Shown one piece after another: positions 1-37,621 of a DNA stretch of 64,000 nucleotides. A model generated the notes under the pieces. That model ran no database searches and was not told the origin of the DNA. It was given only the letters and a program-made list of their open reading frames with translations. Positions within the stretch are counted from its first letter, which is position 1; every line of letters begins with the position of its first letter. The translations under genes were made by a program, and so were the position numbers. The DNA comes from Phytohabitans houttuyneae (GTDB lineage: Bacteria; Actinomycetota; Actinomycetes; Mycobacteriales; Micromonosporaceae): contig NZ_BLPF01000001.1 in assembly GCF_011764425.1 (NCBI RefSeq), forward strand, positions 2,409,001-2,473,000. The letters are read 5' to 3'.

Positions 1-360
1 CCGGGTTGGCTCGGCCCCGTGCTGGGCCAGGTCCCGAACGGGTTCGACCTCGGCTCGCGGAGCACCTACGAGCGCGCGGGCCGCACGCTGACCGGCAAGG
101 GACTCTGGTTCGAAGCGCGGGCGGTGCTCGCCCGCCTCACCTTCCCCACCGGCGACGTCCCGCCGGTGCGCCTGCCGGACCAGGTCGCGGCGCTGTCCAC
201 AGTGGTCGGCCGCCGGGACGCCGAGCGGGTGGCCGCCCTGGTACGGACCGCCTTCGACCTGCGCGAGCGCACGCACGTGGGCGCCGGTGAACTCGCCGCC
301 CTGGCCGGCCGGATCGATGCCGTGCGCCAGCGCTTCGGCCTGCCCGGGACCCGGCCATGA
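1..360 (+). CDS. C-terminal part of an unrecognised protein (5' end outside window)
   Basis: The reading frame is open from the first base and stops with the TGA at 358-360, so about 119 C-terminal residues are visible. The piece is rich in Arg, Leu and Ala, looks mostly helical, and contains the stretch TLTGKGLWFEARAVL. I see no catalytic motif I can name and do not recognise the family. Its stop overlaps the start of the PCP-thioesterase gene (ATGA at 357-360), so the two are probably translationally coupled and this gene likely belongs to the biosynthetic cluster. Its function stays open. Confidence 0.6.
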   Translation, partial: PGWLGPVLGQVPNGFDLGSRSTYERAGRTLTGKGLWFEARAVLARLTFPTGDVPPVRLPDQVAALSTVVGRRDAERVAALVRTAFDLRERTHVGAGELAALAGRIDAVRQRFGLPGTRP

Positions 361-1412
361 GCGCGGATCCGATCGCGGGCCTCCTCCTCGACGCCTTCCG
401 GGACGTCATGTGCTACCCCGAACTGCGCACCGACGAAAACCTCTTCGAGGCCGGCTGCACGTCGCGGATGGCCATGGAGGCGATGGGCCGGGTGCGCCGG
501 CACGGGATTTCGGTGGACCTGCGCGACATCCTGGAGCGGCCGTTCGTCGAGCAGTTGGCACGGCACGCGGCCGAGGAGGTCATGTTCGACGGCCGGATGT
601 GGGCGCCGTTCGACCTGTCCGGCCGGTTCGTGCCGATCAAGGCGCACGGAACCGGCCAGCCGCTGGTCGTCGTGCACCCGGCGATCGGCGAGCCGCTGTC
701 GCTGTGGAACCTGGGAGTCAGCGACGTGCCGTGCCCGATCCTCGGCGTACGCGCCGTCGGGCTGGACCCGGGCGAGCGCCCGCTGGCCCCGATGGAACGG
801 ATCGCGAGCCGCTACCTGGCCGACCTCGCCGCGGCCGGCATCGGCCACCCGCACCTGCTGGGCGGCTACTCGATGGGCGGCCTTGTCGCCCTCGAGATGG
901 CCCGGCAGCTTGTCGAGGCGGGCCAGCCGGCCAAGCTGCTGGTCATCTTCGACACCGTCGTGCCCGAGCTGCGGGCCGACCACAGCCGCGGCCTGCTCGA
1001 CGTCGACCTGGCGCACGTCCGCCGGCACCGGCACGACCTGCTGCTGGGCGAGTTGCGCGGCCGGACCGGCCGGGACCTGCCCGCCGGGGCGAGCTACGCC
1101 GACATCCACGAGGCGCTGCGGCAGGAAGGGGTGCTGGAGCCGGCGACCACGCTGGACAGGTTCATCCGCATCCAGGAGGTGTGGTGCCACAACACGTACT
1201 CCGCCCTGCGGTACGCGTGCAGGCCGGTTCCGGTTGACACCGTCTACTTCCGCGGCACCCGGACCGGCGGCTCAGACCTGCAACGCGAGTACTGGGCGGC
1301 GCTGCAGCGCGGGCACATCACGTTCATCGATCACGCGGAGGACCACGACACCCTGATGCGCAGCCGCGCGGTCGGGCGGGACGTGGTCGAGCTGCTGGCG
1401 CGGTCGTCATGA
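357..1412 (+). CDS. Free-standing carrier protein-thioesterase didomain (PCP-TE)
   Basis: A 351-residue protein with two parts. Residues 1-75 form a carrier domain whose motif NLFEAGCTSRM offers Ser36 for the phosphopantetheine arm. Residues about 100-345 form an alpha/beta-hydrolase thioesterase with GYSMGG (nucleophile Ser172) and a late His in DHAEDHDTLM. This is the layout of the last part of an NRPS releasing module, but condensation and adenylation domains are absent and no neighbour supplies them in frame. It could accept the finished chain in trans and release it by hydrolysis or cyclisation. The start overlaps the upstream stop (ATGA), and its own stop overlaps the start of the SDR gene at 1409. 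The domain calls are firm; the role in release is inference. Confidence 0.85.
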   Translation: MSADPIAGLLLDAFRDVMCYPELRTDENLFEAGCTSRMAMEAMGRVRRHGISVDLRDILERPFVEQLARHAAEEVMFDGRMWAPFDLSGRFVPIKAHGTGQPLVVVHPAIGEPLSLWNLGVSDVPCPILGVRAVGLDPGERPLAPMERIASRYLADLAAAGIGHPHLLGGYSMGGLVALEMARQLVEAGQPAKLLVIFDTVVPELRADHSRGLLDVDLAHVRRHRHDLLLGELRGRTGRDLPAGASYADIHEALRQEGVLEPATTLDRFIRIQEVWCHNTYSALRYACRPVPVDTVYFRGTRTGGSDLQREYWAALQRGHITFIDHAEDHDTLMRSRAVGRDVVELLARSS

Positions 1413-2442
1413 CCGCGGGATCGGTGGCGGTCATCGGCAGCGGCGGGTTTCTCGGCTCGCACCTGGTCCGCTCGTTGCGGGCCGCCCGCATCCGGGTGTC
1501 CGCCTTCACCCGGCACCGCCCCCTCCCACACGCGCTGCGGGCCACGACCGTGTTCTTCGTCGCGGGCTCGGTGACGCCCGCCACCGCCGAGTCCCGACCC
1601 GGTCTCGTCGCGGCCGACCGTGCCCTGCTCGACCGGGTGCTCGCCGCCGTGGGCCGGGCCACCGAACCCACCATGCTCGTGCTGGCGAGTTCGGGAGGGA
1701 CGGTCTACGCCCCCGACGCGCAGCCGCCGTACACGGAGCGGACCCCGGTGGGACCCGACACGGCGTACGGCGAGATGAAGCTCGCGATGGAGGGCGCGGT
1801 GCTCGGCTGCCCGTGGGTGCGGCCGGTCGTGCTGCGGTTCGCCAACGTGTACGGGCCGGGCGAGCGGGCCACCAAGGGACAAGGGGTGATCGCGCACTGG
1901 ATGGCGGCGCTCGCGGCCGGGCGCCCGCTGACCGTGTACGGCGATCCCGCCACCAGCCGCGACTACGTCTACATCGACGACGCGGTCAGCGCGATGATGC
2001 TCGCGCATCGCTCGCCGGAGGTGCCGCCCCGGTGATGAATATCGGATCCGGCGAGGCGACGAGCCTGCACCATCTCGTCTCGCTGGTCACCTCGGCCGTC
2101 GGCGGGCGCCAGGTGTCAGTCGGGCGGCTGCCGGCCCGCCGGGTCGACCGGGCGTACGTGTCCCTCGACGTGGAGCTCGCCGCGTCGGCGCTCGGCTGGC
2201 GGCCGGTGGTCTCGCTGCCCGTGGGGCTCCGGCGTACCTGGCGCCACGTGTCGATCCACCAGCCCGGCCCGCCGCCTGAGTTTCAGGGATCCGGGTGGCT
2301 TGGTGGACTACCCGGTGCCCTCGCCGGCCACCGCGAGCTGCGCGGACCGGATGGCGTCGAGGACGCGGTCGGCGGTGCGCTCTCCGTACAGCGCGCTCGC
2401 GCAGGACACCCGGATGCGCCACCGATGCGGCCGGATTCTTAG
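1409..2442 (+). CDS. NAD-dependent epimerase/dehydratase (extended SDR), frameshifted
   Basis: The first frame (1409-2035) encodes a Rossmann N-terminus with GSGGFLGSHLV, a catalytic-type SSGGTVY, and YGEMK (YxxxK), as in sugar-nucleotide epimerases such as GalE. It stops at 2033-2035 just after YIDDAVSAMM, where the family normally continues. The continuation, VMNIGSGEATSLHHL, is in the next frame from about 2034. Adding one G at cggtg (about 2030) joins the two parts. The second frame stays open to 2442, running into the convergent PCP-C gene, so the true C-terminus may be near 2290 and end in a further defect. It overlaps the PCP-TE stop by 4 bp. It could make or modify a sugar or other hydroxyl-bearing unit; no glycosyltransferase is seen nearby. 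Confidence 0.75.
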
Positions 2443-3828
2443 CTGTACCGACACGTTCGGGTCGACGAACCCCGGCAGCCCCGGAAGCGGCTCGCACGGC
2501 GCACCGTCGAGGTCCCATGCCGGGACCTCGTCGCCGTCCTCGACCCGGAGGTCCCACGCGATCCGGTTGGGGGTCTGCAGGTAGTTGGCCGGCGCGCACT
2601 CCCGCAGTACCTCGCTCCAGGGCAGGTCGGCGTGGCGCAAGGTGGACCGGACCGCGCGGGTGGTAGCCGCCAGCACCTGCGCGGGCGTGGCGCCGGGGGC
2701 GAACCGGGTGCGAAACACGATCCTTGTCGCGAACGATCCCACGGTCTCGGCGAACTCCGGGCGGGACCGGTTGGCGGTGTGCGAGGCGATCACCACGTCC
2801 GGGTCGCCGGTGAGCTGGTAGGCGGCGAGGTTGACCGCGGCGAGGACGGTGGCGAACGGTGTGGCGCCGGCCGTGCGTGCCGCGTCGCGCAGCGCGGTGA
2901 GCTGGCTCCCGGTGACTGTCCACTCGCGAACGTGAGCGGCCGGTCCCCCGGGCTGCCGCTCGGCCGGCGGGTCCGCGGGCAGGGGGTTCTTGAACGGGGA
3001 GCTGCCGGCCAGATGGCGCCGCCACCACTGCCGCACGTCGCTGTCCTCGGCGAGCAGCGGGGTGCTGCGCTGCCAAGTGGCGTAGCGCCACCAGGCCGCC
3101 GCCGCGCGCGCCGGGAGGCGGCCGGTCCGGTAGGCGGTCGTCAGATCGCGGACGAACACCTGGTAGGACAAGCCGTCGAACACCGCGTGGTCGAAGCCGA
3201 ACAGGATCAACCATTGGCCGCCGACGCGGACGAGCCGGGTGCGGAAGACGTCGCCCTCGGCCTGCGCCCAGTCGACCTCGGTGAACTCGCGGATCAGCCC
3301 GTCGAGACCTTCGGGTGTGGTGTGCAGCAGCTCCAGCCGAAGGTCGCTCGGGATGACCTGCTGGCGGGCGCTTCCGGCGGCGTCCCGGAAGATCCGGGTG
3401 TGCAGGGCGTCGTGCCGCTCGGTCACCTGGGCCAGGGCGTCGGTAAACCGTCCAGGGTCGACGGCGGCGCAGCGGACGAAGTGCCAGAGGCGGAAGCTGC
3501 GGGACAGATCCGACCTGTCGCGCAGCAGCCTGCGCTCCTGGTCGAAGGTCGCGGGGTACGGGTCGTCCGGCACCGACCGGCCCGCCGTCTCGTCCAGGTC
3601 CGCACCGAGCAGCCGGGTGCCGAGCCCGGTGGGTGTCGGAGCGGCCAGCAGGTCGGCGAGCGTGAGCGTGCGGCCCGAGACGCGGTGCAGCTGGGCCACC
3701 GCGTGAAGGGCCTGAATGGAACTGCCGCCGAGGAGGAAGAAGTTGTCGTCCGGCCGCACCCGCTCGTCCAGCAGCTCTGACCAGACGTCGACGACAAGCG
3801 CGACCGCGCGGGCGTGGCTGAGTTCCAT
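2308..3828 (-). CDS. Free-standing carrier-condensation didomain NRPS protein (PCP-C)
   Basis: From ATG 3828 the protein has about 506 residues. Residues 1-75 are a carrier domain with NFFLLGGSSIQAL (phosphopantetheine Ser). The rest is a condensation domain whose active-site motif reads FDHAVFDG, keeping the second His, the Asp and the Gly of HHxxxDG. The upstream extension to 3975 is compositionally noise, so ATG 3828 at MELSHARAV was chosen. A PCP followed by C without an A domain suggests a protein that holds a chain loaded in trans and passes it through its own C domain, or receives a unit from one of the free ligases. It is divergent from the thioesterase gene at 3921 and convergent with the SDR gene. 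The partner assignment is inference. Confidence 0.85.
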   Translation of the reverse strand: MELSHARAVALVVDVWSELLDERVRPDDNFFLLGGSSIQALHAVAQLHRVSGRTLTLADLLAAPTPTGLGTRLLGADLDETAGRSVPDDPYPATFDQERRLLRDRSDLSRSFRLWHFVRCAAVDPGRFTDALAQVTERHDALHTRIFRDAAGSARQQVIPSDLRLELLHTTPEGLDGLIREFTEVDWAQAEGDVFRTRLVRVGGQWLILFGFDHAVFDGLSYQVFVRDLTTAYRTGRLPARAAAAWWRYATWQRSTPLLAEDSDVRQWWRRHLAGSSPFKNPLPADPPAERQPGGPAAHVREWTVTGSQLTALRDAARTAGATPFATVLAAVNLAAYQLTGDPDVVIASHTANRSRPEFAETVGSFATRIVFRTRFAPGATPAQVLAATTRAVRSTLRHADLPWSEVLRECAPANYLQTPNRIAWDLRVEDGDEVPAWDLDGAPCEPLPGLPGFVDPNVSVQLRIRPHRWRIRVSCASALYGERTADRVLDAIRSAQLAVAGEGTG

Positions 3829-3920: not shown

Positions 3921-4709
3921 ATGACGACCGGGGCAGAGCGCGATCCCGCGCCGCAGTGGTTTGTGCGGCTGCCACCGCGCGCGGAGGCGCCCGTACGGGT
4001 GATCGGGTTTCCGTCCGTCGGCAATGGACCCGCCCAGTTCAGCCCGCTGGCCAGGGCCGGGCGCGGCCGCCTGGAGGTGTGGGCGGCCAACTTGCCGGGA
4101 CGCCAGGCGCGGTACACCGAGCCGTCGTTCACCCGCTTCGACCCGCTGATCGACGCGCTTGTTCCCGCCGTGGCGGAGGTCCTGGACGACCGGCCGTGCG
4201 TCCTGGTCGGGTACTGCTCGGGTTCGCTGATCGCGTTCGGGCTCGTGCGGGCGTTGCGCAGGCGTGGCCTGCCGGCTCCGGCCGGGCTTGTCTGTGTGGC
4301 GTACCCGCCGCCGCGCGACGGTCTGCACCCGGACCTGTCCGGGGTGTCCTCCGACGACTTCTGGGACCACCTGCTGCACAGTGGTGGTGTGCCTGCTCGG
4401 CTGGCCACCGGTGCGCACCGCCCGCTGTTCGAGCCGGCGCTGCGGGCGGACTACGCGGTGCTGCGCGACTTCCGCCCCGCCGACCCGCAGGATGTCATCG
4501 ACACTCATATATATGCGGTCGTGGGAACCGGCGAGCCCGCGTGGTTGCGCGAGGAGATGAGCGGCTGGGCCCGATTGACCAGCGCCGGTTGCCAGGTGGT
4601 CGAGCTCGACGGCGGCCACTGGCTGCTCGACGAGTCACCGGAGGCGTTCGTCGACTTGGTCGCGGAAGGTCGATGGGTTACCGATCCGGCCCGCTCCGCC
4701 CGCTCCTGA
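3921..4709 (+). CDS. Type II thioesterase with Cys in the nucleophile position
   Basis: A 262-residue alpha/beta hydrolase of the external (type II) thioesterase family found in NRPS/PKS clusters, which normally removes misprimed groups from carrier domains. Family marks are VIGFPSVGNGP near the start, WAANLPGRQAR, and GGHWLLDE with the catalytic His near the end. The elbow motif that should read GxSxG is GYCSG, so the nucleophile position is Cys99 instead of Ser. The start is ATG 3921; the upstream frame to 3837 is not supported. It is divergent from PCP-C and convergent with the ligase gene ending at 4719. A Cys nucleophile is known for some NRPS thioesterases and may change what is released or transferred. 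Confidence 0.85.
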   Translation: MTTGAERDPAPQWFVRLPPRAEAPVRVIGFPSVGNGPAQFSPLARAGRGRLEVWAANLPGRQARYTEPSFTRFDPLIDALVPAVAEVLDDRPCVLVGYCSGSLIAFGLVRALRRRGLPAPAGLVCVAYPPPRDGLHPDLSGVSSDDFWDHLLHSGGVPARLATGAHRPLFEPALRADYAVLRDFRPADPQDVIDTHIYAVVGTGEPAWLREEMSGWARLTSAGCQVVELDGGHWLLDESPEAFVDLVAEGRWVTDPARSARS

Positions 4710-4718
4710 CCGCCGCAG

Positions 4719-6088
4719 CTACCCGCGGGCCGGCACCTCGACCGCTTCCGGAGCTGTGAGCAGCCGCCACAGCTCGGCACGAATGGGCTTGCCGACGGGA
4801 GTGCGCGGGATTGCCGAAACGACCCGCACCCGGGAGATCGGCGGACCGATGCCGGCCACCGCGGCGAACGCTTCCGGCTCGCCGCCGCCGTCACCGAGCA
4901 CGACACAGGCGCCCAGTCCGTCCCATCCCCCGGCGCCGTCGATCGCCGCCACGGCACAGTCCTTGATGTACGGTCGCCCGCTCAGGCGTTCTTCGATCTC
5001 GGTGAGGACCGCTCGCCCGCCGGGCAGAAACACGATCTCCTTGGCCCGCCCGACCAGATGCACCCGTCCCCGCTCGTCCAGGTAGCCCAGGTCTCCGGTG
5101 CCGATCCAGCTCCGGCCGGCTGGGGCCGGATCGCCCGCGTGGTGGGAGACCTGGATCTCGCCGACCGTTCCGGGTGGAGCCACGCCCCCGTGGTCGTCCA
5201 CGATCCGGGCTTTCGTGCCCGGGCTCGGCACGCCCAGCACGTCGGACTCGCCGCGCTTGGCGAGGCGCGTGAAGATCGCGGCGCCGAGCTCGGTAGCGCC
5301 GTAGATCGAGAAGATCCGGGCCGCCGGAAACGCGTCCATCGCCGCCGAGGCGAGCTGTTCGGAGAGTGGGCCGGCCACCACCTTGACCGTGGTGATCCGG
5401 CTCGACGCCGCCGGCGGCAGGCCCGCCGCGAGCAGCTTGCGCAGGGCGTACGGCGTCACGACCAGCTCACGGCAACCGAACCTCTCGACGAGATCGGGCA
5501 CCTGCGCCGGGTCTTTGGCGGCGGCGCTGAGCGCACCCACCGCGAGGTGCCGCAGGAGGATGCCGTGCACGCCGGTCGAGGTGCCGAACGGAATGCCGCA
5601 GTGCACGACGGCGCTCCCAGCCGTACCGGACGGCCGGAAGGGCCAGTCCCGGTGATGGAAGACCGCCGGTTTCGGTACGCCGGTCGTGCCCGAGCTGAAG
5701 ACGATGTCCAGTGGGTCGTCGGGCGCCGGACGGGCCCGGCCGGTAGCCCTCGGCTCGGCCGGCTCCGGGTGAGGTGCTCGTCGAACCGCCCGACCGGGCC
5801 GTCGACGAGCCGCAGGAGCCGCTCGTCGTTGATGAGGACCGCGACCGCCCCGATCCACGCGCAGGCGAGGTAGTCCACCGCGATGGACCGCCACGGGCGG
5901 CCGGCGAGGGTGACCGCCATCCGGTCGCCGGTGCGGACACCCGCTCGGCGCAGTCGCTCCGCACGCCGGACGGCGTCCAGCAGCAGTGGCCGCACCGCGG
6001 TCGCGCCATCGATGTCCGCGAGACCGCCTCCGGCCGGCGTGAACACCCGGTGGGCGATGAGCTGCGCGACGGTCGCCGTTTCTGACAT
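4719..6088 (-). CDS. AMP-forming acyl/aminoacyl ligase (adenylation enzyme), frameshifted
   Basis: An ANL-superfamily adenylating enzyme. Visible marks are VFSSGTTGVPKP (A3), YGATELG (A5), GTGDLGYLDERG (A7/A8), VGRAKEIV, and PRTPVGKPIRAEL with the C-terminal Lys. The N-terminal third (MSETATVAQLIAHRVF...) lies in one frame and the rest, from about PEPAEPRATG, in another. One C added in the CCC run near 5767 joins them. ATG 6088 is preferred because GGAG lies six bases upstream, while ATG 6094 has no spaced ribosome site. It is the last gene of the carbamoyltransferase-ACP-carbamoyltransferase-ligase operon, so it may load the carrier protein at 8094-8326. The substrate is unknown. Confidence 0.8.
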
Positions 6089-6106
6089 AGCCATCTCCAG
6101 CGTGCT

Positions 6107-8097
6107 TCAGCGCGGTTTCCGCGTCCTGGGGTTGTGCGCCTGGTAAATCCACGCGGTGAAGAGCCGCCGCAGTTGGGGGTCTTTGGCGAGCCAGGTGTCG
6201 ATGGTCTTTTTGAGGATGGTGGCGTTTCGTGGGTTGGTGAGGTCGAATTTGCGGCGTAGGAGTGGGTAGCGGAGCCAGACGTGTAGGTAGAGGTCGTCCA
6301 GGCCGGTCGGGTTGAGTTGTTCGGCGAGTTTGGTGATGTGTGCCGGGTCGCGTTCGAACGGTTTCGTGGTGCGCGGCAACGGCTGGGTCGACTGGTACCG
6401 GGCGGCGTTGGTGAACGTGATCCGGTGCTGGTTGAGGTAGGCGAACGGCAGGTTCTTCCGTAGACAGAAGTTGATCGCCTGCGGGATGGTGTCGATGATC
6501 GGCTCGCCTTTGTCGTTCAACGACGTGTTACACAGCAGCGGCACCCCGGTCGCTTCAGCAAAACCGGTCAGGATCTGATGCAGGACCGGATCCTGCCGCG
6601 CGGTCAGGGTCTGCACCCGCGCCGACCGGTCCAGATGCGCGATCGCCGGCACCAGATGCTCACGGTCACCGCGGACGGTAAAGGTCTCCAACATGTAGGG
6701 CGAGGGCCGCGGGTTTTCGAACCAGTCGGCGTGGTCCTCTTCCCGGATGATCGGAGCGACCGGCCGCCACCACTGCCGCTGCTTGAGCCGGTTCAACTCG
6801 TCCTTCGAGGCCAACCGGGTCGGATCAGCCAGGATCGACCGGTGCCCCAGCGCCCGCGGGCCCAGCTCGGCACGCCCGTCCAACCACACCACCGCCGCAC
6901 CCGACCGCAAATCCGCGACCACGTCCGCCACACTGGCCGGCCGAACCTCCGCGATGAACCCCTCAAAACCAGCCAACGCGGCAGTCACATCAACGTCTTC
7001 GTGTCCGACGTAGGCGCCCGGGAAACGGAACGAAAAATCCGTACCACAACGGCGGAAGAACGCGCCCAACGCGATACCCAAAGACTGGCCGCTATCGTCC
7101 ACACACGGCGGTGTCAACAACCGCGCAAACCCGTACCTGTCCATCAACGCACTATTCGTCGGACAGTTCAACGCGAACCCACCAGCCAACGCCAAAGCCG
7201 TAACACCCGGATCAATACCGAACCGGTCACACGCCTCATCAATATTCCGCTCCATCACCGCAAGCGAAATCCGCTGGATCTCCTTCATCACCGCACTCAT
7301 CACCTGCTCCTCAGGCGTGAACCGATGATCCGGCACCCAACCAGCCTCCACCACCGCATCATGCAAACGCCCAACAAAACGCTCACACTCAACCAAAAGC
7401 GTCGCCGCCCGACCAGAAAACGACAACTCCCGCAACGCCTCGTCCCGCAACCCACCCACATCAGCATCACACGACGCCGCCGAAGCCAACGCCATCAACG
7501 TACCCTCACGCAAACCAAACCGATGACGCGCCGCCGTAAACAACCGCGCCGGCGAACCCACCGAAAACCAAGAAACCCGCCCCTCCACGAAATAGGCACC
7601 GGCGCAGGATGACGGGTAGTCCTTCGTGGCGAGGACGGCGTCGGAGTCGGGGCCGCCGTCGACGGCCATCGCCAGCACGGGCATCGAGCTGGCAACGTCG
7701 GTGTCGAGCAAGGCGCAGCTGAAGACGTGCGCGAGGCTGTGCGGTGGCAGGTCGGCGTCGGCGTAGTCGCCGCTGACGTCGACATAGCGGTCGCCGCCTA
7801 TCCCGGGCGTCCCCCAAAACTCCACCACGTCGCCGACATCGACACCCACTGACGCCAACAGCGACGCCACAAGCCCGTCACCGGACACCTCGTCAGCGAC
7901 CGCCGCCCCATGACGACGCCAGCCCGACAACCGGTCGACCGGCCAATAACCCACCAACCGCACCACACCCCCGACTTCTGCCACAAAGACACGTTCGTGT
8001 TGTGGCGAAGCCAGGTGTCCAGGACATGGGGAAGGCCGGGTGGGGTCAGGTAGGTGGAGACGTAGTAGCCGTCCCTCATCGCGGCTTGTTGCGTCAT
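6107..8097 (-). CDS. O-carbamoyltransferase, copy 1 (NodU/CmcH type), frameshifted
   Basis: The enzyme family moves a carbamoyl group from carbamoyl phosphate through carbamoyl-AMP to a hydroxyl. Seen here are the Kae1-like part (PPHSLAHVFSCALL, LALAGGFALNCPTN) and the YrdC-like part (GRAELGPRALGHRSIL, CNTSLNDKGEPIIDT). The N-terminus from ATG 8097, MRDGYYVSTYLTPPG, is in a different frame from the main body. Adding one G at TTG|TGG (7983/7984) gives the family-like HNTNVSLVAEVGGVVRL. Without repair, translation could restart at the GTG encoding MAEVGGVV. The start overlaps the ACP stop (ATGA, 8094-8097). Its C-terminal end after LAKDPQL differs from copy 2, while the 1407 bp before that is shared. 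Confidence 0.85.
6171..7577. repeat. 1407-bp near-perfect direct repeat, copy 1 (inside carbamoyltransferase 1)
   Basis: This segment matches 8424-9830 at a constant offset of 2253 bp. By eye I found no difference, and the encoded residues are the same throughout. Outside it, the two genes differ at the N-terminal part and at the last residues. The sharp edges suggest recent duplication followed by gene conversion, or conversion alone. Such a repeat could also collapse or be mis-joined in a short-read assembly. Confidence 0.95.
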
Positions 8098-8326
8098 GCC
8101 TGGTGCAGGACCGTGACCTGGCGCAGCGGCATGGTCGAGGAGAGCTCTTCGATGTCCACGTGCAGCCCTTCGTCGCCGAGCGTCTCGACGATGACGATGG
8201 CCGACAGCGAGTCGCCCCCAGGTCCTGGAAGCTCGCGGAGCCGTCAGGCGGGTCGATGTCCAGGGCGTCCGCGACGGCGCCGAGGAGTCGGGACAGCGGT
8301 GGGGCGTCGGCCTCTGTCTGGGGCAT
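8094..8326 (-). CDS. Acyl carrier protein between the two carbamoyltransferases, frameshifted
   Basis: A stand-alone carrier protein of about 77 residues. From ATG 8326 it reads MPQTEADAPPLSRLLG and then FQDLG. The motif GDSLSAIVIVETLGD, with the phosphopantetheine Ser, follows in the next frame. Inserting one G in the G run at about 8218-8222 restores FQDLGGDSL and an in-frame end VTVLHQA with TGA at 8094-8096. The start is four bases after the stop of carbamoyltransferase 2, and the stop overlaps the start of carbamoyltransferase 1. The tight placing suggests that the carbamoylated or ligase-loaded intermediate is carrier-bound. This is inference from context. Confidence 0.8.
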
Positions 8327-8329
8327 GGT

Positions 8330-13571: not shown

Positions 13572-16569
<2,998 letters not shown>

Positions 16570-16583
<14 letters not shown>

Positions 16584-30018: not shown

Positions 30019-30027
30019 CGTGACGAG

Positions 30028-31838
30028 CTAACCATTGTGAGCTGGCGTCAGCCCGTCACCCGTTCTCGGGACTGTGCCCGCGGCCCCGGCGGTCGTTGGC
30101 CGGTCAGCGTACGCGTTCGCCTGGAGCCGGTACAGGTCCGCGTAGACGCCACCGCTTGCCATCAACGCCTCGTGGCTGCCCTTTTCGACCAGGCGGCCGC
30201 CGTCCAGCACGACGATCAGATCCGCCATCCGCACGGTCGAGAAGCGGTGCGAAACCAGGAGCGTGACGCCGCCGCTGCCGGCGTCGGGCCGGCGGCCGAA
30301 GGACTCGTAAAGGTCGTGCTCCGCCTTGGCGTCGAGCGCCGCGCTCGGCTCGTCCAGCACCATCAGCAGTGGGCGTTCCCGCATGAGGGCACGGGCCAGC
30401 GCCAGCTTCTGCCACTGCCCGAGCGACACGTCGACGCCGTCGAAGGTGGGGCCGAGCTGCGTGTCCAGCCCCGCGGGCAGGCTCGCGACCACCCCACCGG
30501 CATCGGCACCGGACACCGCACGGGCGACGGCCGACCGCTCACGGAGCCGCGCGACGTCACCGACGCCCACCGTTTCCCGGGCCAGCAGGTGAAACTGCGC
30601 GTAGTCCTGGAATATCCCGGACATCCTCGCCCGCCACGAGTCCAGCGTGTACTCGGCAAGCGGGCGCCCGTCGATCCGCACGGCACCGGCGGTCGGCTCG
30701 TACATTCCGGCGAGCAGCTTCACCAGCGTCGTCTTTCCGGAGCCGTTGACACCCACAAGCGCCACGGTCTTGCCGGCCGGCAGCTCGAGGTGGATGTCAC
30801 GCAGCGCGGGTGCTTCGGCACCGGGGTACCGGAACGACACGCCGTCCAGAGTGATCCCGCGCTGCAGCCGCTGCGGCACCGGCCGGCGCTGGGGGGAGCG
30901 CTGTGCGCGGGCGTACCTGCGCAGCCACATGAAGTGGCCGACGATGTGGCCGGCGTCGGCGACCCGCCGGCTGTTCCAGACGACGGCCCAGATCTGCCAC
31001 TGCAGCTGGGTGGCGAGGGAGATCACCAGCAGCACGTCGCCAGGCGTCGCGCGACCGGCGCGTACCTGCTGCGTGACAAGCCACACCGCGCCGACCTGCC
31101 CGGCGACGAAACACAGCCAGCCGCCGAGCTCCCAGACCGAGCCGCGCAGCTGCGCCAGCGCCTGGCGGCGGGTGACCTCCCGCCACAGCCGTGCGGCCCG
31201 CCCGTCAAGCTCCCGGGCGGAGTCACTGATGCGCAGTTCCTCGGCGTGCTCGGCGCCGACGCACAGCTCGTGCAGGCGCCGCTCCTGCCGTACCTGTTGC
31301 GCCGAGGCGTCGCGGGCCGCCTGCCGGTACCTGCTCGCGCGGTGGCTGCCCAGGAGCGGGAAGACGGCGAGGACGCAGAGCGCGGCAAGAGCCGGGTAGA
31401 TCTCGCCCAGCAGCACTCCGCTCAGCACGAGGCTGACCGCCGTGGCGAGGGCGGCGGCCATCGACCAGAGCGCCGTCGCCAGCGCCCAGCTGCCCCGCCG
31501 CAGCTGGTCCAGCCGGTCCAGGTACTCCGGGTGCTCCAGGTGCGCGATGGTGGGGATGCCGGCAGCCGTGGTGAGGATCTCGCCGCTGAGCGCGGTGTCC
31601 ACCCGCTCGCCGAGGTAGACGCGCAGCGTGTTCTGGGCACGAAACATGACCAGCACCGCACCGTGGGCCAGCGCACCGACCGCGACCGCCAGCGCGATCC
31701 CCGCGCCCCGGTCGGCGGCCACCGCGTCGACAAGCCACCGTTGGCTGGCGCCGACGCCCGCGGCGACACCCCCTGGACCAGGGCCAGGCCGGCCAGCGAG
31801 AGGGTCGCGGTCCGGTCCGCCCGGTACGTGACGGCCAC
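30028..31838 (-). CDS. ABC transporter half (membrane plus ATPase domains), frameshifted near N-terminus
   Basis: A fused exporter subunit: an N-terminal membrane domain with hydrophobic spans, then an ATPase domain with Walker A GVNGSGKTTL, signature region VSLGQWQKLALARAL (VSLGQ instead of LSGGQ), and Walker B LLMVLDEPSAALD. The first membrane span (ATLSLAGLALVQG) and the following segment (AAGVGASQRWLVDAV) are in different frames. One added G in the run at 31769-31773 joins them. The start is uncertain: GTG 31838 is the first common in-frame start, but the frame extends toward a GGAGG near the end of the previous gene. It likely forms a heterodimer with 31873-33714 and exports the product or gives self-protection. 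Confidence 0.85.
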
Positions 31839-31872
31839 CGCGTGGCGGGCGAACCACCACAGGTCGCTCGCG

Positions 31873-33714
31873 CTAACTCGTCTGATGGGTACCCGCCTCC
31901 TCGAAGCGACGCGCCTGCAGGAGGTAGAGCCGCCGGTACTCGCTGTCTCGCGCCATGAGCTCCCTGTGGCCGCCCTGCTCGACGATCCGGCCGTCGCGCA
32001 GCAGGACGATGCGGTCAGCCGGGCGCACTGTCGAAAGCCGGTGCGAGATGAGCAGCACGGTCGCACCGTCCACAGCGGACACGATGCTTTCGTGGAAGGT
32101 CGCCTCGGCGCGGACGTCGAGGTTGGCGGTCGGTTCGTCCAGCACCAGCACCCGCCTTCCGTGCGCCACGGCGAAGAGGGCCCGGGCGACGGCGATGCGC
32201 TGCCACTGGCCGCCCGACAGGTCTGTGCCTGCGCTCCCCTCCCGCCACAGCGAGCCGTCCAGGCCGGCCGGCAGGGCCTCGTCCGCGCCGGCCTTCCGGA
32301 GGGCGGCGACGACGCCTTCGCGGTCGGCGAGCGCCTCGGGCGCCGCGAGGGCGACGTTGTCGCCGGCCGACGCCGGGTACCGGACGTGCTCCTGGAACAC
32401 CGCCGCAACCGAGCTCCGCCAGGCGGCCAGGTCGAGTTCGGCCAGGTCGACACCGTCGACGGTGATCCGGCCCGCGGTCGGCTGGTACAAGCCGGCGAGC
32501 AGCCTGACGAGCGTGGTCTTGCCGGTGCCGTTGCGCCCCACGAGGGCGACGGTCTCGCCGGCGTGCAGCGTGAGCGTGAGGTCCTTGAGCACGGGTCGAT
32601 CCGGATCGCCGGGATAGCTGAAGCTCACCGACTCGAACCGGATGGTCGGCGCGGTCGCCGGCGGCCGCGCGGACCGCTCGGCGGTGGCCGCACCGCCCGA
32701 TCCCGACTCGAGCCGCGCCAGCGCCTGGGCGGCGCGGGTGCCGTACTCGACGTCGAACATCTCCTCGCCGTGCTCGGTCAGCGTGAAGATGCCCCAGATG
32801 AGGAGGAGCCCCATGGCGATCTCGGCCGTGGTGAAGCTGCCCGAGCCGAGCACTCCCCACGCCACGGCGGCCGCCGCCACGACCAGCACCGCGGAGGTCC
32901 ACTGCTGCCGGACCACCCGGGTGGCCACGCGCCACTGCGGTGTGTTGCTCCGCGCGCTCCACACCCGCCAGCGGCCGTGTATCCACGGTCCGAGGCCGAA
33001 GAGCAGGACCTCCTTGGCCGCCTTTTCTTCGGCAAGCCCGGTCCAGTAGCCGACGCGGCGCCGGTCGGCGGCCGCGGCGTCCTTGGCCGAGGCGAGGGAC
33101 ATCCACTGCCGACGGATCCGGGCGCCGACCACGACCGCGACCGCCAGCAGCAGCACCGCCGGGACGACCGCGATGGCAGCCAGCGCGACGGCTGCGATCA
33201 CCGCGCCGGCCGACCGGGACATCAACGCCAGCTGGCCGATCGCGGCGGCACCCGGTGAACCGGACCGGCCCAGGCCCCGCCCGTCGTCGGTGGCCCGGCA
33301 CGCGTCGTCCTGGAATCTGGGTGACTCGAGGTGTCCGATCCCCGGCGGGCCGAGTGCGACGACCCGGACCCGGCGGCGCACCGCGCCGTCCACCCGGCGG
33401 ATCACCAGGTAGTCGACGGTGCCGCCGAGCGCGTACACGGTCTGCGTGAGCACCACCACGCCGCCGACGCCGCACGCCGCGACAAGCAGGTGGATCGCGC
33501 CGGCCGGCTGGCCGAGCGTGCGCACCACGTACGCGGCGCTCGCCGCAGCGAGCGTGGGCAGCAGCGCCGTGACGACGCGGGTGGCGGCCACCACCGAGAC
33601 GAGCCACCGTCCCTCGGCGACGAGCAGCCGCAGCAGCGACGCCCTTGCCGACCAGTCCGCACGCCGTGCGAACACCCACGACCGGAGCCCGGAGCGCACG
33701 CGGCCGCCGGTCAC
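31873..33714 (-). CDS. ABC transporter half (membrane plus ATPase domains)
   Basis: About 613 residues from GTG 33714, which overlaps the stop of the condensation-like gene (GTGA). The membrane domain has several hydrophobic spans (for example AAVALAAIAVVPAVLLLAVAV). The ATPase domain has VGRNGTGKTTLV (Walker A), DLSGGQWQRIAVARAL (canonical signature) and RVLVLDEPTANLD (Walker B), and ends with the H-loop area LISHRLSTVRPAD. Its signature is canonical while the partner's is degenerate, as in many heterodimeric exporters where the two ATP sites are unequal. Export of the cluster product is inferred from position. Confidence 0.92.
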   Translation of the reverse strand: MTGGRVRSGLRSWVFARRADWSARASLLRLLVAEGRWLVSVVAATRVVTALLPTLAAASAAYVVRTLGQPAGAIHLLVAACGVGGVVVLTQTVYALGGTVDYLVIRRVDGAVRRRVRVVALGPPGIGHLESPRFQDDACRATDDGRGLGRSGSPGAAAIGQLALMSRSAGAVIAAVALAAIAVVPAVLLLAVAVVVGARIRRQWMSLASAKDAAAADRRRVGYWTGLAEEKAAKEVLLFGLGPWIHGRWRVWSARSNTPQWRVATRVVRQQWTSAVLVVAAAAVAWGVLGSGSFTTAEIAMGLLLIWGIFTLTEHGEEMFDVEYGTRAAQALARLESGSGGAATAERSARPPATAPTIRFESVSFSYPGDPDRPVLKDLTLTLHAGETVALVGRNGTGKTTLVRLLAGLYQPTAGRITVDGVDLAELDLAAWRSSVAAVFQEHVRYPASAGDNVALAAPEALADREGVVAALRKAGADEALPAGLDGSLWREGSAGTDLSGGQWQRIAVARALFAVAHGRRVLVLDEPTANLDVRAEATFHESIVSAVDGATVLLISHRLSTVRPADRIVLLRDGRIVEQGGHRELMARDSEYRRLYLLQARRFEEAGTHQTS

Positions 33715-35123
33715 CCGCCCACTCCGGCGAAGTCCGCCGTGTCCGTGCGCGCCTGCTGGCACTGCTCCCGTACCTGTGCGAGGGACACCGGTTCGAAAGC
33801 CGCCGTCACGACGAGGTGTTCGAGCCCGTACAGGAACGCCTCGAGGTGGTGCGGCGGCAGGTACACGGAGTCGCCGTTGAGTGAGATCATCCGGCTGGCG
33901 CCGCTGCCGCGCAGCCGCAGGCAGAACCTGCAGCGCACCTGGGACGGCTCGGGCAGCCAGTGCAGGCGGGTCTGCGGCCGCATGGCCATGACGGCGTCCC
34001 GGTCGGGGTCCTCCGCCGCCAGGCGCGGCACGCCCTCCTCGCTGGTGCTCACGTCGTTGAAGCAGCAGTACGGCAGGACCTCGCCGCCACGCGCCTCGCG
34101 CGCCTCGGTGAGGACCCGGTCGACGGCGGCCTGCTCGTAGTAGGCGTGCCGGTAGGTGGCCAGCGCGCCGGCGCCGCCGCGGGTGAGCAGCTCGTCGAAG
34201 TCGACCTCGCCGTCCAGGTCCAGCGTGAGCAGCCCGCCCTGCTGCAGGTTGCTGACCACGTGCCGGTACGCGGCACGGAAGCGGTTGTGGACGATCACGG
34301 TGAGGGCGCTGACCTTGTGTCCGGTCCAGGCGCCCAGCATCGTGGCCGTCGCGACGAGTAGCACGGTGGACGTGGTGAGGCGGTGGTGGGCCGCGAGGCG
34401 GCGGGCGGCCGCGTTCAGCGCCGGCGAGGTGAACGTCGCTTCCTGCGAGCGGGGCGTACGGCCGGGGCCGGCCGGTGCGCTGAGCATGGTCAGTGGGATC
34501 CGCGCGCACTGTTCGCGCCAGTACCGGACCGCCCGGTCGGTGCGCGACCTGCCGGACTCCTGCTCCCACCGAGCGACGTCCAGCGGCTGCATGGCCGCGT
34601 CGGTCGCGAACGTGCCGGCGGTGAGCAGCGACCGCACGTCGTTCAGGACGATCTGGCTGGCGTGCCAGTCCAGCGTCAGGTGGTTGAACCCGAACACGAT
34701 CCGCTGGACGGCGCCGTCGACCATCACCAGGCACGCCTCAAGTGGCACGACGTCTTCGCGCGGCGTGGGCTGGGTGGCGATCTCGTACCAGATCCGCTGG
34801 GTGTCGTGCTGGAGCCGGTCCCGTTCGGTCTCGTACACCCGCAGCGCGATCTCACCGGTCTGCGCGGCCACCTGGCGCGGGCCGGCGCCGGTGCTGACGA
34901 GCCGCGTGCGCAGGGCCTGATGCCGGGCAACGGTACGGGCGAGCGCCTGTGCCACCGCGTCCGGCGTGCGCGCGGCGCTTGCCGGCAGCGGCAGGATCTG
35001 CGCGATCGTGGTCTGGCTGGTGGGGTTGCGGCCCATGGCGTCCCACATGCCGCGCTGACCCCAGGTAAGTGGACCCGTGCCGCCGTGTTCGGCGGTGAAC
35101 GGGACGTCTATGTGGCCATCCAC
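33711..35123 (-). CDS. Stand-alone condensation-domain-like protein
   Basis: 470 residues starting MDGHIDVPFTAEHGG at ATG 35123. PLTWGQRGMWDAMGRN opens a fold of the NRPS condensation type. The active-site stretch is FGFNHLTLDWHA, which keeps one His and the Asp of HHxxxDG but has Asn and Trp at the flanking positions. No carrier or A domain is attached. It could join a carrier-bound unit to an amine or alcohol in trans, for example in release or tailoring. A truncated relative lies at 35830-36257. The gene is 15 bp after the methyltransferase and overlaps the ABC gene start. Confidence 0.82.
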   Translation of the reverse strand: MDGHIDVPFTAEHGGTGPLTWGQRGMWDAMGRNPTSQTTIAQILPLPASAARTPDAVAQALARTVARHQALRTRLVSTGAGPRQVAAQTGEIALRVYETERDRLQHDTQRIWYEIATQPTPREDVVPLEACLVMVDGAVQRIVFGFNHLTLDWHASQIVLNDVRSLLTAGTFATDAAMQPLDVARWEQESGRSRTDRAVRYWREQCARIPLTMLSAPAGPGRTPRSQEATFTSPALNAAARRLAAHHRLTTSTVLLVATATMLGAWTGHKVSALTVIVHNRFRAAYRHVVSNLQQGGLLTLDLDGEVDFDELLTRGGAGALATYRHAYYEQAAVDRVLTEAREARGGEVLPYCCFNDVSTSEEGVPRLAAEDPDRDAVMAMRPQTRLHWLPEPSQVRCRFCLRLRGSGASRMISLNGDSVYLPPHHLEAFLYGLEHLVVTAAFEPVSLAQVREQCQQARTDTADFAGVGG

Positions 35124-35138
35124 GGTGCGCCTCCGTCG

Positions 35139-35759
35139 TCAGCCCACCCGTCGGGCCAGCACGTTCCTTGTCTTGTGAAGGATCTCGAACTCATCGCTGT
35201 CACCGAAGAACTCGTCGACGGCCCGGACGACTCCGGGAAACGTGGGGCTGTAGTCGTCGAGGAAGACGACTCCCCCGGGAACCACCTTTGGCGCGTAGTC
35301 GTGGATGTCACCGCGGACGGTCTCGTAGGAGTGGCTGCCGTCGACGACGAGAACGCCGATCCGGTCCGGGACAAGGTCGACTGTGGAGTGTGACAGCCCG
35401 GTCAGCACCATGCACTGACCTTCCAACCCGTACTTCCGCACGTTGTTGTGGTATTCCGCGTAGTCACCCTGGACGTTGTTGGCCTCCACGCTGAGAAGGT
35501 CGAAGGCGTCGATGCTGAGTACCGGCAACGGCCGGCCGAGCACGCGCAGGGTCCGCCCGATGAAACAGGCCGTGCCCCCGCGGTAGGTCCCGATCTCGAC
35601 GACGATGGTGCCGGCCGTGGCCGGGCACAGCGCGAGGGCGGAGGCGAGGGTGAGCAGCTCCCCCGCGTCGGCCACCTCTGACGCGTGCTCGCGGGTGAGC
35701 TCGGCGACCTCGTCCGGCAGGTGGACCTCTTCGTCCTTCTGGTTGAGGTACGTCCGCAT
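35139..35759 (-). CDS. SAM-dependent class I methyltransferase (Methyltransf_24/CmcI-like)
   Basis: About 206 residues. VVEIGTYRGGTACFIG is the SAM-binding loop, and LVVDGSHSYETVRGDI matches the DGxHxYxxVxxD box of the small O-methyltransferases related to the cephalosporin hydroxylase CmcI. ATG 35759 is preferred over GTG 35762 by distance from GGGGGAG. It lies between the condensation remnant and the intact condensation-like gene within the same minus-strand unit. O-methylation of the product or a precursor is likely; a sugar substrate is also possible for this family. Confidence 0.88.
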   Translation of the reverse strand: MRTYLNQKDEEVHLPDEVAELTREHASEVADAGELLTLASALALCPATAGTIVVEIGTYRGGTACFIGRTLRVLGRPLPVLSIDAFDLLSVEANNVQGDYAEYHNNVRKYGLEGQCMVLTGLSHSTVDLVPDRIGVLVVDGSHSYETVRGDIHDYAPKVVPGGVVFLDDYSPTFPGVVRAVDEFFGDSDEFEILHKTRNVLARRVG

Positions 35760-35829
35760 CACGCTCTCCCCCGGCTCCCCCGTCGTTATGGCGACCGTAT
35801 GGGATCTGAGCGATCGGTTGATCGTCCCA

Positions 35830-36257
35830 TGAACTCGGGACAGCGAGCCGCGCGGGTCAGGGTTGGGGGTGACACGGCGGCCAGCTTCGACGCGTCCAGC
35901 CTCGTGGAGATCTCCCTCCCGGACCGACCGTCCAGCGCGTCCGGTTCGTCAACGACTTGTCCATGGCGTTGAAGCAGCACAGCGGGTTGATCTCGCCGCC
36001 TCGTTCGGCGTTGACGCGTTCTCTGGCCACATCCAGTCCGGTCCTCGTGCCGGGTCAGCAGCTGCTCGATCGCCTCGAGCGTGGACGCGACACCGGCCCT
36101 GAGGGTCCGACAGGCCGACGACGAACGCGAGGTTCCAGGCCTGCCGGTTGCGGGCCATCCCGTCCCACCTACCGCGTTGACCCCAGGTGAGCGGCTCTTC
36201 ACCGTCCCGCAGGCCGCGGAAGTCCACATTGACTACTCGCGCGTGTGTCGTCGTCAT
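35830..36257 (-). pseudogene. Remnant of a second condensation-like gene
   Basis: From ATG 36257 the frame reads MTTTHARVVNVDFRGLRDG and EPLTWGQRGRWDGMARN, matching the start of the protein at 33711-35123. After about 35 residues the resemblance is lost. In another frame near 35965-36030 appears ERGGEINPLCCFNAMDKS, matching the later part of the intact protein (ARGGEVLPYCCFND). So the ends of the gene remain with a large internal deletion and frame changes. The ATG overlaps the stop of the GH30 gene (ATGA), so the lost gene was once coupled to it. Confidence 0.75.
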
Positions 36258-37621
36258 GCGAGGACGAGGGTGGTCAGCGAGCGCGCTGGCAGCAGGACCG
36301 CCGGGCCGCCGTCCGACCAGTCAACCGACACGGGTGCCATCGACCGTGCCTCGTCGGTCACATAGGCCGTGACGCCCTCAGTCGCGTGCCGCCCCAGGCT
36401 TCCGAACCTCGCCGGCCGCTCGGCTCCACCGTTGATGAGGTTGACGACGACCGGTCCTGCCGGGTTGACGAAGGCGGACACCTTGACCGTGGAGTCGTCC
36501 GCCGTGGCCTCCACGCGGACGGCTTCTGGACGGATGAACCGGCTGTACCCGGCCATCGCCCACAGCCGCTTCGACACGTGGTACCGCGCGCCGTCGAGTT
36601 GGATGAGTGCGCGGGTGCCGCCGACGGAGGCGCCGAGCCAGTAGATGTACCCGCTGACGTTGGCGGCGGTGAGGGCGTCGTGGATGTCGTTGGCGAGCTG
36701 GATGCCGTCCGAGCGGTTTCCGGTGTCCCAACCGGGGATCCAGGTGTTGCCGCCCACGTCCGGTTCCCATTCCGACATCCAGGTCTTTCGCGCGGTCGGC
36801 AGTCTCGACCGGGCCGGCTCGGCGTAGTTGTGTCCAGCGTGGACCGCCACCCGCGCGGCGGCCTCGGGGTCGGCCTCGATGGCCGCGGTGTAGCGCGCCT
36901 GCTGTGCCCACGACATCGCGTCGCAGCAGACGATGGAGACCGGCAGGTCTGACCGCTCGACCGCGCGCCCGAGCACCTTCACGAAGTCGACGACCTGGGC
37001 GTAGTCCATCCGCATCGCGGCGTAGTGGATTTCGTCCGGTCGCTTGACGAGAAACAGGTCCGGCTCGTTGGTGAAGCCGAGGTGGGTGATCTCGATACCC
37101 TCCCTGCGGTAACACCTCACGTACTCGAGCAGGTACTCCGCATACCTGGCGCGCCAGTCCGGCTGGCCCTGCGGCGTCCCGGGTAGACCGTTGAGAAACC
37201 CGCCTCCGGTGTCCTTTCCGTTGCTCATCATGTATCCGGGGGCGCTCCAGGCGCATGCGTAGTACTGCCGTACGCCGTACTCCGCGGCTCTTTGGGCGAG
37301 CCAGAGCTGGCCCGAGTCGTCGGCGTCCCACTCGTACTTCATCGGGGCTTCCGGTCCGCCCGGCGAGATGGGGGCGATCGACCGCATGTGGTCGTACACC
37401 TCATCGCCCGAGGAGCCGATCCCGAGCCTGAGGATCGAAAACCCCGCACCATGAGTGGTACTCAGCAGCAGGTCCAGAACCTCGCGCTGCTTCGCCGGCG
37501 GCAGGCCCCGCGAACCGCGCATGATGGTGGCGCGCTGGAAGGCTTCACAGAACCCGAAGCCGTCGATGGCCTGGTGCCTGACTGACTGGTCAACGTTTAT
37601 GAACACGGTGCTGTCGGCCAT
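36254..37621 (-). CDS. GH30-like glycoside hydrolase without a signal peptide
   Basis: 455 residues resembling GH30 clan-A enzymes (glucosylceramidase/endo-beta-1,6-galactanase type). DGFGFCEAF opens the barrel, HLGFTNEPDL holds the likely acid/base Glu, and KTWMSEWEPDVGG the likely nucleophile Glu. A beta-sandwich tail follows. The N-terminus (MADSTVFINVDQSVRH) shows no hydrophobic leader, so the enzyme appears cytoplasmic, unlike most GH30 enzymes. Its stop overlaps the start of the condensation remnant, placing it at the head of the biosynthetic operon. It may trim a sugar from an intermediate or an inactive glycoside; no glycosyltransferase is visible. An accidental neighbour is also possible. 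Confidence 0.8.
   Translation of the reverse strand: MADSTVFINVDQSVRHQAIDGFGFCEAFQRATIMRGSRGLPPAKQREVLDLLLSTTHGAGFSILRLGIGSSGDEVYDHMRSIAPISPGGPEAPMKYEWDADDSGQLWLAQRAAEYGVRQYYACAWSAPGYMMSNGKDTGGGFLNGLPGTPQGQPDWRARYAEYLLEYVRCYRREGIEITHLGFTNEPDLFLVKRPDEIHYAAMRMDYAQVVDFVKVLGRAVERSDLPVSIVCCDAMSWAQQARYTAAIEADPEAAARVAVHAGHNYAEPARSRLPTARKTWMSEWEPDVGGNTWIPGWDTGNRSDGIQLANDIHDALTAANVSGYIYWLGASVGGTRALIQLDGARYHVSKRLWAMAGYSRFIRPEAVRVEATADDSTVKVSAFVNPAGPVVVNLINGGAERPARFGSLGRHATEGVTAYVTDEARSMAPVSVDWSDGGPAVLLPARSLTTLVLA

What the first reader, a model, noticed from the sequence alone, without database searches (positions are those of the whole stretch)
1..37621. Split hybrid NRPS/PKS line with many free-standing domains
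Three complete C-A-PCP modules and one PKS are accompanied by detached PCP-TE, PCP-C, C-only, two ligase/ACP pairs and three type II thioesterases. The module count does not equal the gene order of a simple collinear line, so chain transfer must occur in trans. I cannot match this set to a characterised cluster from memory.
Basis: partly seen in the sequence, partly recalled or inferred. Interest (0 to 1): 0.7.

Follow-up and report, generated by a model that had tools for sequence, protein, structure and literature searches.

The report
Split glycine peptide-polyketide gene cluster
A soil bacterium's already catalogued but chemically unknown antibiotic-type gene cluster looks more fragmented than it is because of likely reading errors in the genome, yet it carries an unusual pair of cysteine-based helper enzymes that may carry building blocks between its separate parts.

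Summary
The parts are real, but several "splits" are frame breaks. Product unknown. Intact relatives show breaks in the PKS, the second NRPS module and both carbamoyltransferases; G/C runs of six or more are depleted in this PacBio-only genome. Allowing for the breaks, the core is one coupled operon: C-A-PCP, C-A-PCP, ACP-KS-AT-KR-DH-ACP, C-A-PCP. All three A domains have glycine-type codes, one more than published. So "transfer must be in trans" is overstated for the core; ligases, ACPs, PCP-C, C and PCP-TE are separate proteins. The cluster joins two cassettes found apart elsewhere. The surprise: two of three "type II thioesterases" have a Cys nucleophile. In 14 of 14 loci examined (picked by similarity) such a protein directly follows a glycine-type C-A-PCP gene; 12 of 14 have a small ACP nearby, in the window fused to the KS. 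I infer an acyl shuttle; untested.

The parts
1..360 (+). 3' end of a 585-aa protein of unknown family (whole gene L069:7603-9360), overlaps the PCP-TE gene by 4 bp
   Evidence: no Pfam or NCBIfam match at 1e-3
357..1412 (+). PCP-TE (size of Phou_022170)
   Evidence: Pfam PP-binding and Thioesterase; GYSMG motif
1409..2307 (+). NAD-dependent epimerase-like gene, frame-broken near 2005-2045
   Evidence: Pfam Epimerase on 1409-2035; C-terminal part read in another frame
2308..3828 (-). PCP-C didomain
   Evidence: Pfam PP-binding and Condensation; DHAVFDG
3921..4709 (+). TEII_1, TEII-like with Cys nucleophile (GYCSG)
   Evidence: Pfam Thioesterase; alignment; tree
4719..6107 (-). lig1, AMP-ligase, frame-broken in its N-terminal half
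   Evidence: Pfam AMP-binding from profile position 155 only; N-terminal half read in another frame
6107..8079 (-). carbamoyltransferase copy 1, one frame break near 7963-7975
   Evidence: Pfam; S. vietnamensis homolog aligned in two frames
8094..8326 (-). discrete PCP/ACP between the carbamoyltransferases, frame-broken beside a run of five
   Evidence: reading frames only, no Pfam run; run at 8215
8330..10337 (-). carbamoyltransferase copy 2, two frame breaks; 1407-bp tract identical to copy 1
   Evidence: Pfam
10503..11684 (+). cytochrome P450 with haem-ligand motif FGLGRHYC
   Evidence: Pfam
11780..13297 (+). lig2, AMP-ligase
   Evidence: Pfam AMP-binding and AMP-binding_C
13287..13547 (+). 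discrete ACP
   Evidence: Pfam PP-binding; Phou_022270 size
13572..16583 (-). NRPS1, C-A-PCP, glycine-type A code
   Evidence: Pfam; Agly in the paper
16570..17355 (-). TEII_2, ordinary Ser-type TEII (GHSMG)
   Evidence: Pfam
17352..20552 (-). PKS, second part: end of AT, KR, DH, ACP (KR before DH)
   Evidence: Pfam; continuous with the first part in S. fuscum
20537..23038 (-). PKS, first part: ACP, KS, AT; frame break in AT near 20537-20552
   Evidence: Pfam
23035..24252 (-). NRPS2, second part: A (C-terminal, glycine-type code) and PCP
   Evidence: Pfam
24216..26156 (-). NRPS2, first part: C and A (N-terminal); frame break near 24216-24252
   Evidence: Pfam
26153..26896 (-). TEII_3, TEII-like with Cys nucleophile (GYCGG), overlaps the NRPS3 gene by 4 bp
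   Evidence: Pfam; AlphaFold mean pLDDT 86; RifR, RedJ, BorB fold
26893..30018 (-). NRPS3, C-A-PCP, glycine-type A code, HHMVADH in C
   Evidence: Pfam
30028..33714 (-). two ABC exporter half-proteins
   Evidence: Pfam ABC_tran; 48-49% homologs near the same block in G600
33711..35123 (-). free-standing C protein
   Evidence: Pfam Condensation
35139..35762 (-). class I methyltransferase (TylF-like), 15 bp before the C gene, likely first gene of the operon
   Evidence: Pfam Methyltransf_24, TylF

Best explanation
This is the orphan NRPS/PKS cluster pks/nrps-8 of P. houttuyneae. Shown from sequence: a coupled operon encodes C-A-PCP (NRPS3), Cys-TEII, C-A-PCP (NRPS2), ACP-KS-AT-KR-DH-ACP, Ser-TEII and C-A-PCP (NRPS1); all three A codes are glycine-type; NRPS2 and the PKS are each cut by a frame break where relatives have one protein. 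Most likely, not proven: the breaks are sequencing errors. Inferred: the line makes acyl-Gly-Gly-(C2, reduced and dehydrated)-Gly, so the PKS step would give a 4-aminocrotonyl ('vinylogous glycine') unit. lig2/ACP and lig1/PCP load acids in trans, the PCP-TE releases, and the carbamoyltransferases, P450, methyltransferase and left-operon enzymes decorate. Inferred: the Cys-TEIIs (TEII_3, TEII_1) take an aminoacyl or peptidyl group from a glycine module's PCP onto their Cys and pass it to another carrier (the ACP before the KS is the obvious one), like CmaE, CysB or LgnA; the Ser-TEII edits.
For: Identity: 11.34 Mb, 5 contigs, ORF sizes against Table 5. One operon. Glycine codes, Agly for NRPS3 and NRPS1 in the paper. 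Relatives with unbroken PKS and NRPS2. Runs of 6+ against runs of 5: 14/227 here versus 47/194 pooled in two congeners with many more contigs, Fisher p 7.6e-6; outside the cluster 13/180. PacBio RSII with Canu as the stated method, and the authors' own doubt about split genes. Cys-TEII: in a tree of 46 TEII-like rows 19 of the 20 Cys rows form one side of a branch, support 99/98. In 14 of 14 loci a Cys-Asp-His protein starts -14 to +1 bp after a C-A-PCP gene with D(I/V)LQ...(V/A)IW code. A small ACP within 9 kb in 12 of 14. Three Streptomycetaceae genomes hold ACP, NRPS and Cys-TEII as a unit, in two of them with a separate NRPS/PKS gene run next to it. Precedents: LgnA, CysB, CmaE, SyrC.
Against: No transfer was measured. 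LgnA, a demonstrated TEII shuttle, has an ordinary Ser triad, so Cys is not needed for shuttling, and Cys-type thioesterases also do other work: beta-lactone (ObiF), beta-lactam (SulM), tetramate (NcmC). Cys arose more than once among the rows: G461_33454 (GHCGA, long branch) lies among the Ser rows. Only 3 of 8 frame breaks sit on a G/C run of five, a fourth lies directly beside one, so homopolymer error does not explain each by itself. The partner C domains read HHxxxD followed by A, H, Y or V, not G, in 13 of 14; whether they condense is unknown. No acceptor carrier is identified, and no MbtH-like motif was found by pattern in the window or left flank. The 14 loci were picked by similarity to TEII_3, so the pairing is measured inside one clade.
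Confidence: 0.5

Rival explanations
1. The Cys-TEIIs are ordinary editing thioesterases that happen to use Cys; they clear stalled glycyl or peptidyl groups and transfer nothing.
For: Closest solved relatives are the TEIIs RifR, BorB, RedJ; editing is the usual TEII role; a Cys-Asp-His triad can hydrolyse.
Against: A Ser-type TEII of the same cluster (TEII_2) is already there, and 5 loci (window, S. fuscum, G600, G493, G480) carry all three types, so the Cys types are unlikely to be redundant; the strict pairing with one kind of module is more than general editing needs.
Confidence: 0.33
2. The frame breaks are real mutations and the cluster is decaying.
For: Eight breaks in seven genes between 2 and 24.3 kb; only 3 of 8 on runs of five and one beside such a run.
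Against: Long G/C runs are also depleted outside the cluster (13 of six or more against 180 of five in 186 kb); the paper finds split PKS/NRPS genes in the genus and leaves open whether they are artefacts; both pieces of the PKS and of NRPS2 keep strong coding scores.
Confidence: 0.12
3. Two independent clusters lie side by side: the lig2, ACP, NRPS1, C cassette plus the left operon, and the NRPS3-TEII-NRPS2-PKS block with exporters.
For: Each half has its own relatives elsewhere; in the 8 block loci no lig2 match exceeds 33%, against 52-60% in the 10 cassette loci.
Against: NRPS1 overlaps TEII_2 by 14 bp and TEII_2 overlaps the PKS by 4 bp in one operon.
Confidence: 0.1
4. The Cys-TEII is an off-loading cyclase of the TrdC/NcmC Dieckmann kind and the product is a tetramate.
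For: Those enzymes are TE-like with a Cys-Asp-His triad.
Against: The only PKS module in the window has KR and DH, so no beta-keto group is offered next to glycine; TEII_3 lies between modules, not at the end.
Confidence: 0.05

Closest known systems
pks/nrps-8, P. houttuyneae NBRC 108639 (Komaki & Tamura 2020, PMC7692728; abstract, methods, first part of results, discussion and tables read)
   Same: The same cluster: 11 of 12 listed ORF sizes match when the stop is counted, the 12th fits a GTG start.
   Different: The paper deduces x-Gly-pk-Gly-x, does not list the split glycine A domain of NRPS2, writes DH/KR where the order is KR then DH, marks another strand for NRPS1 than for the PKS, and its table covers PKS/NRPS ORFs only (no TEIIs, carbamoyltransferases or left operon).
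Sphaerisporangium fuscum H8589 locus (NZ_JAHDTF010000029.1, L004/L072)
   Same: NRPS3, Cys-TEII, NRPS2, ACP, PKS in the same order at 50, 54, 44-54 and 58-60/42% identity.
   Different: ACP is a separate gene; several more KS-AT-KR-DH modules; no lig2 or carbamoyltransferase among the best matches in the 57 kb read.
LgnA TEII of legonindolizidine biosynthesis (PMC8748450; abstract, passages and discussion read)
   Same: A TEII-like protein beside a discrete loading module; shown to move an aminoacyl group between carriers.
   Different: Ser nucleophile, A-T partner for Thr; no PKS step in the passages seen. No sequence comparison was made here.
CmaE / SyrC / CysB aminoacyl shuttles (PMC7966384 and PMC8748450 passages; original papers not seen)
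   Same: Shuttle protein, loading module, second carrier protein.
   Different: No sequence comparison was made here; a glycine C-A-PCP and a KS-linked ACP are not mentioned in the passages seen.

Membership tests
Hybrid NRPS/PKS gene cluster | C, A, PCP and KS, AT, ACP domains in one coupled gene set | tested here: met
   Pfam; operon joints
pks/nrps-8 of P. houttuyneae | Genome size, contig count and ORF sizes as published | tested here: met
   11 of 12 ORF sizes equal with the stop counted
Type II thioesterase (canonical) | RifR-like alpha/beta-hydrolase fold | tested here: met
Type II thioesterase (canonical) | Ser nucleophile in GxSxG | tested here: not met
   TEII_1 GYCSG, TEII_3 GYCGG; TEII_2 GHSMG meets it
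Aminoacyl shuttle (CmaE, SyrC, CysB, LgnA) | Transfer of an aminoacyl group between carrier proteins via an acyl-enzyme | not testable with these tools
   needs purified proteins
Aminoacyl shuttle (CmaE, SyrC, CysB, LgnA) | Genetic pairing with a discrete loading module and a second carrier | tested here: met
   14 of 14 loci with the module, 12 of 14 with a small ACP; loci picked by similarity to TEII_3
Aminoacyl shuttle (CmaE, SyrC, CysB, LgnA) | Sequence kinship to a proven shuttle | not tested
   none of these proteins was fetched
TrdC/NcmC-type Dieckmann cyclase | Sequence or fold kinship to NcmC | tested here: inconclusive
   PDB searches neither showed nor exclude it

The most novel reading that the evidence does not exclude
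A clade of Cys-nucleophile TEII-like proteins, genetically tied to a glycine-type C-A-PCP module and a small ACP in the window's family, in Sphaerisporangium and in some Streptomycetaceae, is a new line of aminoacyl shuttles that hand glycine (or a glycyl peptide) in trans to the ACP feeding a KS-AT-KR-DH module, building 4-aminocrotonyl units; the window carries two of them and a Ser-type editor.
Probability: 0.3. Interest if true: 0.65.

Novelty: new variant of a known kind. Interest (0 to 1): 0.42.

Why it matters
It bears on a doubt stated in the published account, whether split PKS/NRPS genes in Phytohabitans are real: here relatives and base-run counts point to sequencing error, which changes the predicted product (three glycine units rather than two). 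It also gives a compact, testable set (module, Cys-TEII, ACP) for chain transfer between separate assembly-line proteins, where few enzymes are characterised. If only the first part holds, it is a useful correction to one orphan cluster.

Tried and rejected
A search for near copies of the free C protein in 394 genomes of the class gave at best 39% outside the own genome; none of the 5 other genomes of the genus has NRPS3 at 1e-150. Plasmid records gave no close carbamoyltransferase (best 47%) or PCP-TE (28-29% in the best rows). Six-base G/C runs in 104 kb of this genome alone were few (about 5 seen, about 12 expected); the larger sample was clearer. One of the stretches pooled there, L109 of G001, was fetched for another reason and is unusually rich (8 runs of six or more against 6 of five). 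My first intervals for the frame breaks were partly misplaced and were corrected for the carbamoyltransferases with an intact homolog and a recheck. The automatic 299/301 residues printed are unreliable (the pattern caught a neighbouring position); I rely on the motif text for the window and use only positions 235-239, 278, 322, 330 and 331 for relatives. The three Streptomycetaceae proteins are not in that tree. Loci for Cys-TEII were chosen by score to TEII_3: the window, S. fuscum, all 9 non-own genomes at 1.2e-46 or better of 200 in the family sample, and 3 of the 4 non-own genomes listed at 1e-36 or better of 394 in the class sample (the fourth, G349, is Ser-type). Weaker Cys types may have been missed. 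The small ACPs of relatives were recognised by alignment and motif, not by Pfam. In PDB searches NcmC did not appear among 30 phmmer matches up to E = 10 or the 50 entries shown. antiSMASH and MIBiG are not on hand, so 'no characterised match' rests on the paper's own statement and on literature searches. That I know of no Cys-TEII shuttle in print rests on searches only, of which I saw the top listings and passages of six papers.
Full report
What it is. The window lies at 2,409,001-2,473,000 of contig 1 of an 11,342,817-base genome in 5 contigs. A published survey gives P. houttuyneae NBRC 108639 as 11.34 Mb in five scaffolds, and its Table 5 lists pks/nrps-8 with 12 ORFs. Counting the stop codon, 11 of the 12 listed sizes equal ORFs in the window (471, 1042, 661, 872, 1041, 1004, 87, 506, 296, 507, 352), and the twelfth (398) fits a GTG start at 24228. 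The cluster is therefore already catalogued; its product is unknown.

The splits. S. fuscum carries the PKS as one 1736-aa ORF and the second NRPS module as one 1020-aa ORF. Each aligns to the window in two frames that meet at 20537-20552 and 24216-24252. A Streptomyces vietnamensis carbamoyltransferase aligns to copy 1 in two frames and to copy 2 in three. The PCP between the copies, lig1 and the epimerase also change frame, by reading only. Of these eight breaks three sit on a G/C run of five and a fourth directly beside one; the others do not. In 224 kb of this genome there are 14 G/C runs of six or more against 227 of five; in 170 kb of two congeners with many more contigs, which I take to be short-read drafts, 47 against 194 (Fisher p 7.6e-6); two further congeners assembled as single contigs give 6 against 78 and 9 against 84. 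Outside the cluster this genome has 13 against 180. The paper states PacBio RSII with Canu and asks whether split PKS/NRPS genes are artefacts. I conclude that most splits here are probably sequencing errors, though not each is explained by a long run.

The core. Allowing for the two breaks, C, two ABC exporters, NRPS3, TEII_3, NRPS2, PKS, TEII_2 and NRPS1 follow each other on the minus strand with gene joints of -14 to +12 bp. The PKS order is ACP-KS-AT-KR-DH-ACP, KR before DH, with the usual KS, AT and KR motifs and a DH whose HxxxGxxxxP motif has R in place of G. The three A domains share D-I-L-Q-L-G-V-I-W, the glycine-type code (recalled; the paper's software also says glycine for NRPS3 and NRPS1). 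In gene order this reads Gly, Gly, reduced and dehydrated C2, Gly: one glycine more than published.

Two cassettes. In 10 inspected genomes of the family, taken from the 98 of 200 with a strong NRPS1 match, NRPS1-like C-A-PCP genes at 48-52% occur in the same stretch as lig2-like ligases (52-60%) and a free C protein, 10 of 10; an ACP was also matched in G472, G484 and G029 there and in G601 and G502 by gene calls. The NRPS3-TEII_3-NRPS2-ACP-PKS order recurs in S. fuscum, G600 and G493, and shorter forms in others. In the 8 loci no lig2 match exceeds 33%, and no carbamoyltransferase was matched in the 18 loci. The window cluster joins the two.

The Cys-TEIIs. TEII_3 reads GYCGG and TEII_1 GYCSG where TEII_2 and RifR have GHSMG. 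The TEII_3 model (mean pLDDT 86) is a TEII fold closest to BorB, ClbQ, RifR and RedJ, with Cys89 at the strand-helix turn. In a tree of 46 TEII-like rows 19 Cys rows form one side of a branch (99/98). A recheck showed a twentieth Cys row, G461_33454, on a long branch among the Ser rows, so Cys is not confined to this clade. TEII_1 groups with GYCSG proteins of S. fuscum, G600, G493, G480 and G461; TEII_2 with Ser proteins of S. fuscum, G600, G493 and G480; so five loci have the full set of three. In 14 of 14 loci the TEII_3-type protein keeps Cys, Asp and His and begins -14 to +1 bp from the end of a C-A-PCP gene, whose A code is glycine-type. These loci were picked by similarity to TEII_3. 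A small ACP (102-172 aa; in the window fused to the KS) lies within 9 kb in 12 of 14; it was not seen in G480 and in G471, where the stretch ends. In three Streptomycetaceae genomes ACP, NRPS and Cys-TEII form a unit, in G317 and G365 beside a separate run of NRPS and PKS genes; in G427 that side was not read. In the sample of 394 genomes of the class only these 3 besides the own genome had a match at 4.2e-59 or better.

How it likely works. LgnA is a TEII shown to move Thr between carriers on two proteins; CysB, CmaE and SyrC do so in other pathways; a loading module, a transferase and a second carrier are the common set. For the Cys thioesterase ObiF the acyl transfer is described as an energy-neutral transthioesterification that protects the thioester from solvolysis. 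I therefore infer that the Cys-TEIIs shuttle. This is not shown: Cys also serves lactone, lactam and tetramate formation, LgnA itself uses Ser, and editing cannot be excluded.

Carbamoyltransferases. The two tandem copies share an identical 1,407-bp tract (6171-7577 and 8424-9830, G+C 62%) while the 5' parts differ. Gene conversion or assembly smoothing could each do this.

Verdict. Ordinary in kind, already listed, with a corrected module count and one testable, less ordinary element.

Noticed in passing
L069:2421-11035 (6.6 kb left of the window, into 1-2035): Operon with GT4, radical SAM-SPASM, PLP decarboxylase (PanP/DABA-like), unknown, sulfotransferase, unknown 585-aa protein, ending in the PCP-TE and epimerase: the cluster extends beyond the window.
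   Followed up: partly
window 6171-7577 and 8424-9830: Identical 1,407-bp tract in tandem carbamoyltransferase genes, lower G+C (62%) than the surroundings.
   Followed up: partly
G000:C1:500796-503795 (L089:15757-18816): A second C-A-PCP in the same genome, 43% identical to NRPS3 and also glycine-type; its 1019 aa is the size given for Phou_004780 of the published nrps-10 (other sizes in that table count the stop).
   Followed up: partly
L070:10717-13976, L083:18518-19999, L085:11655-14126: LanB-N-like (PF04738) and FemAB-like proteins near KS-AT-KR-DH genes in S. fuscum; proteins with a similar N-terminus by eye in G026 and G006.
   Followed up: no
L193:9112-14446, L195:8333-13640, L197:3496-8665: Compact ACP, NRPS (glycine-type), Cys-TEII units in three Streptomycetaceae genomes.
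   Followed up: partly
G461 locus (L162/L163 joined) 33454-34053: A distant TEII-like protein with GHCGA, a second and separate occurrence of a Cys nucleophile.
   Followed up: no
window 41492-44484: Two tandem, similar secreted-looking proteins of about 500 aa; no family search run.
   Followed up: no
window 53065-53256: Short ORF that looks like a transposase remnant.
   Followed up: no
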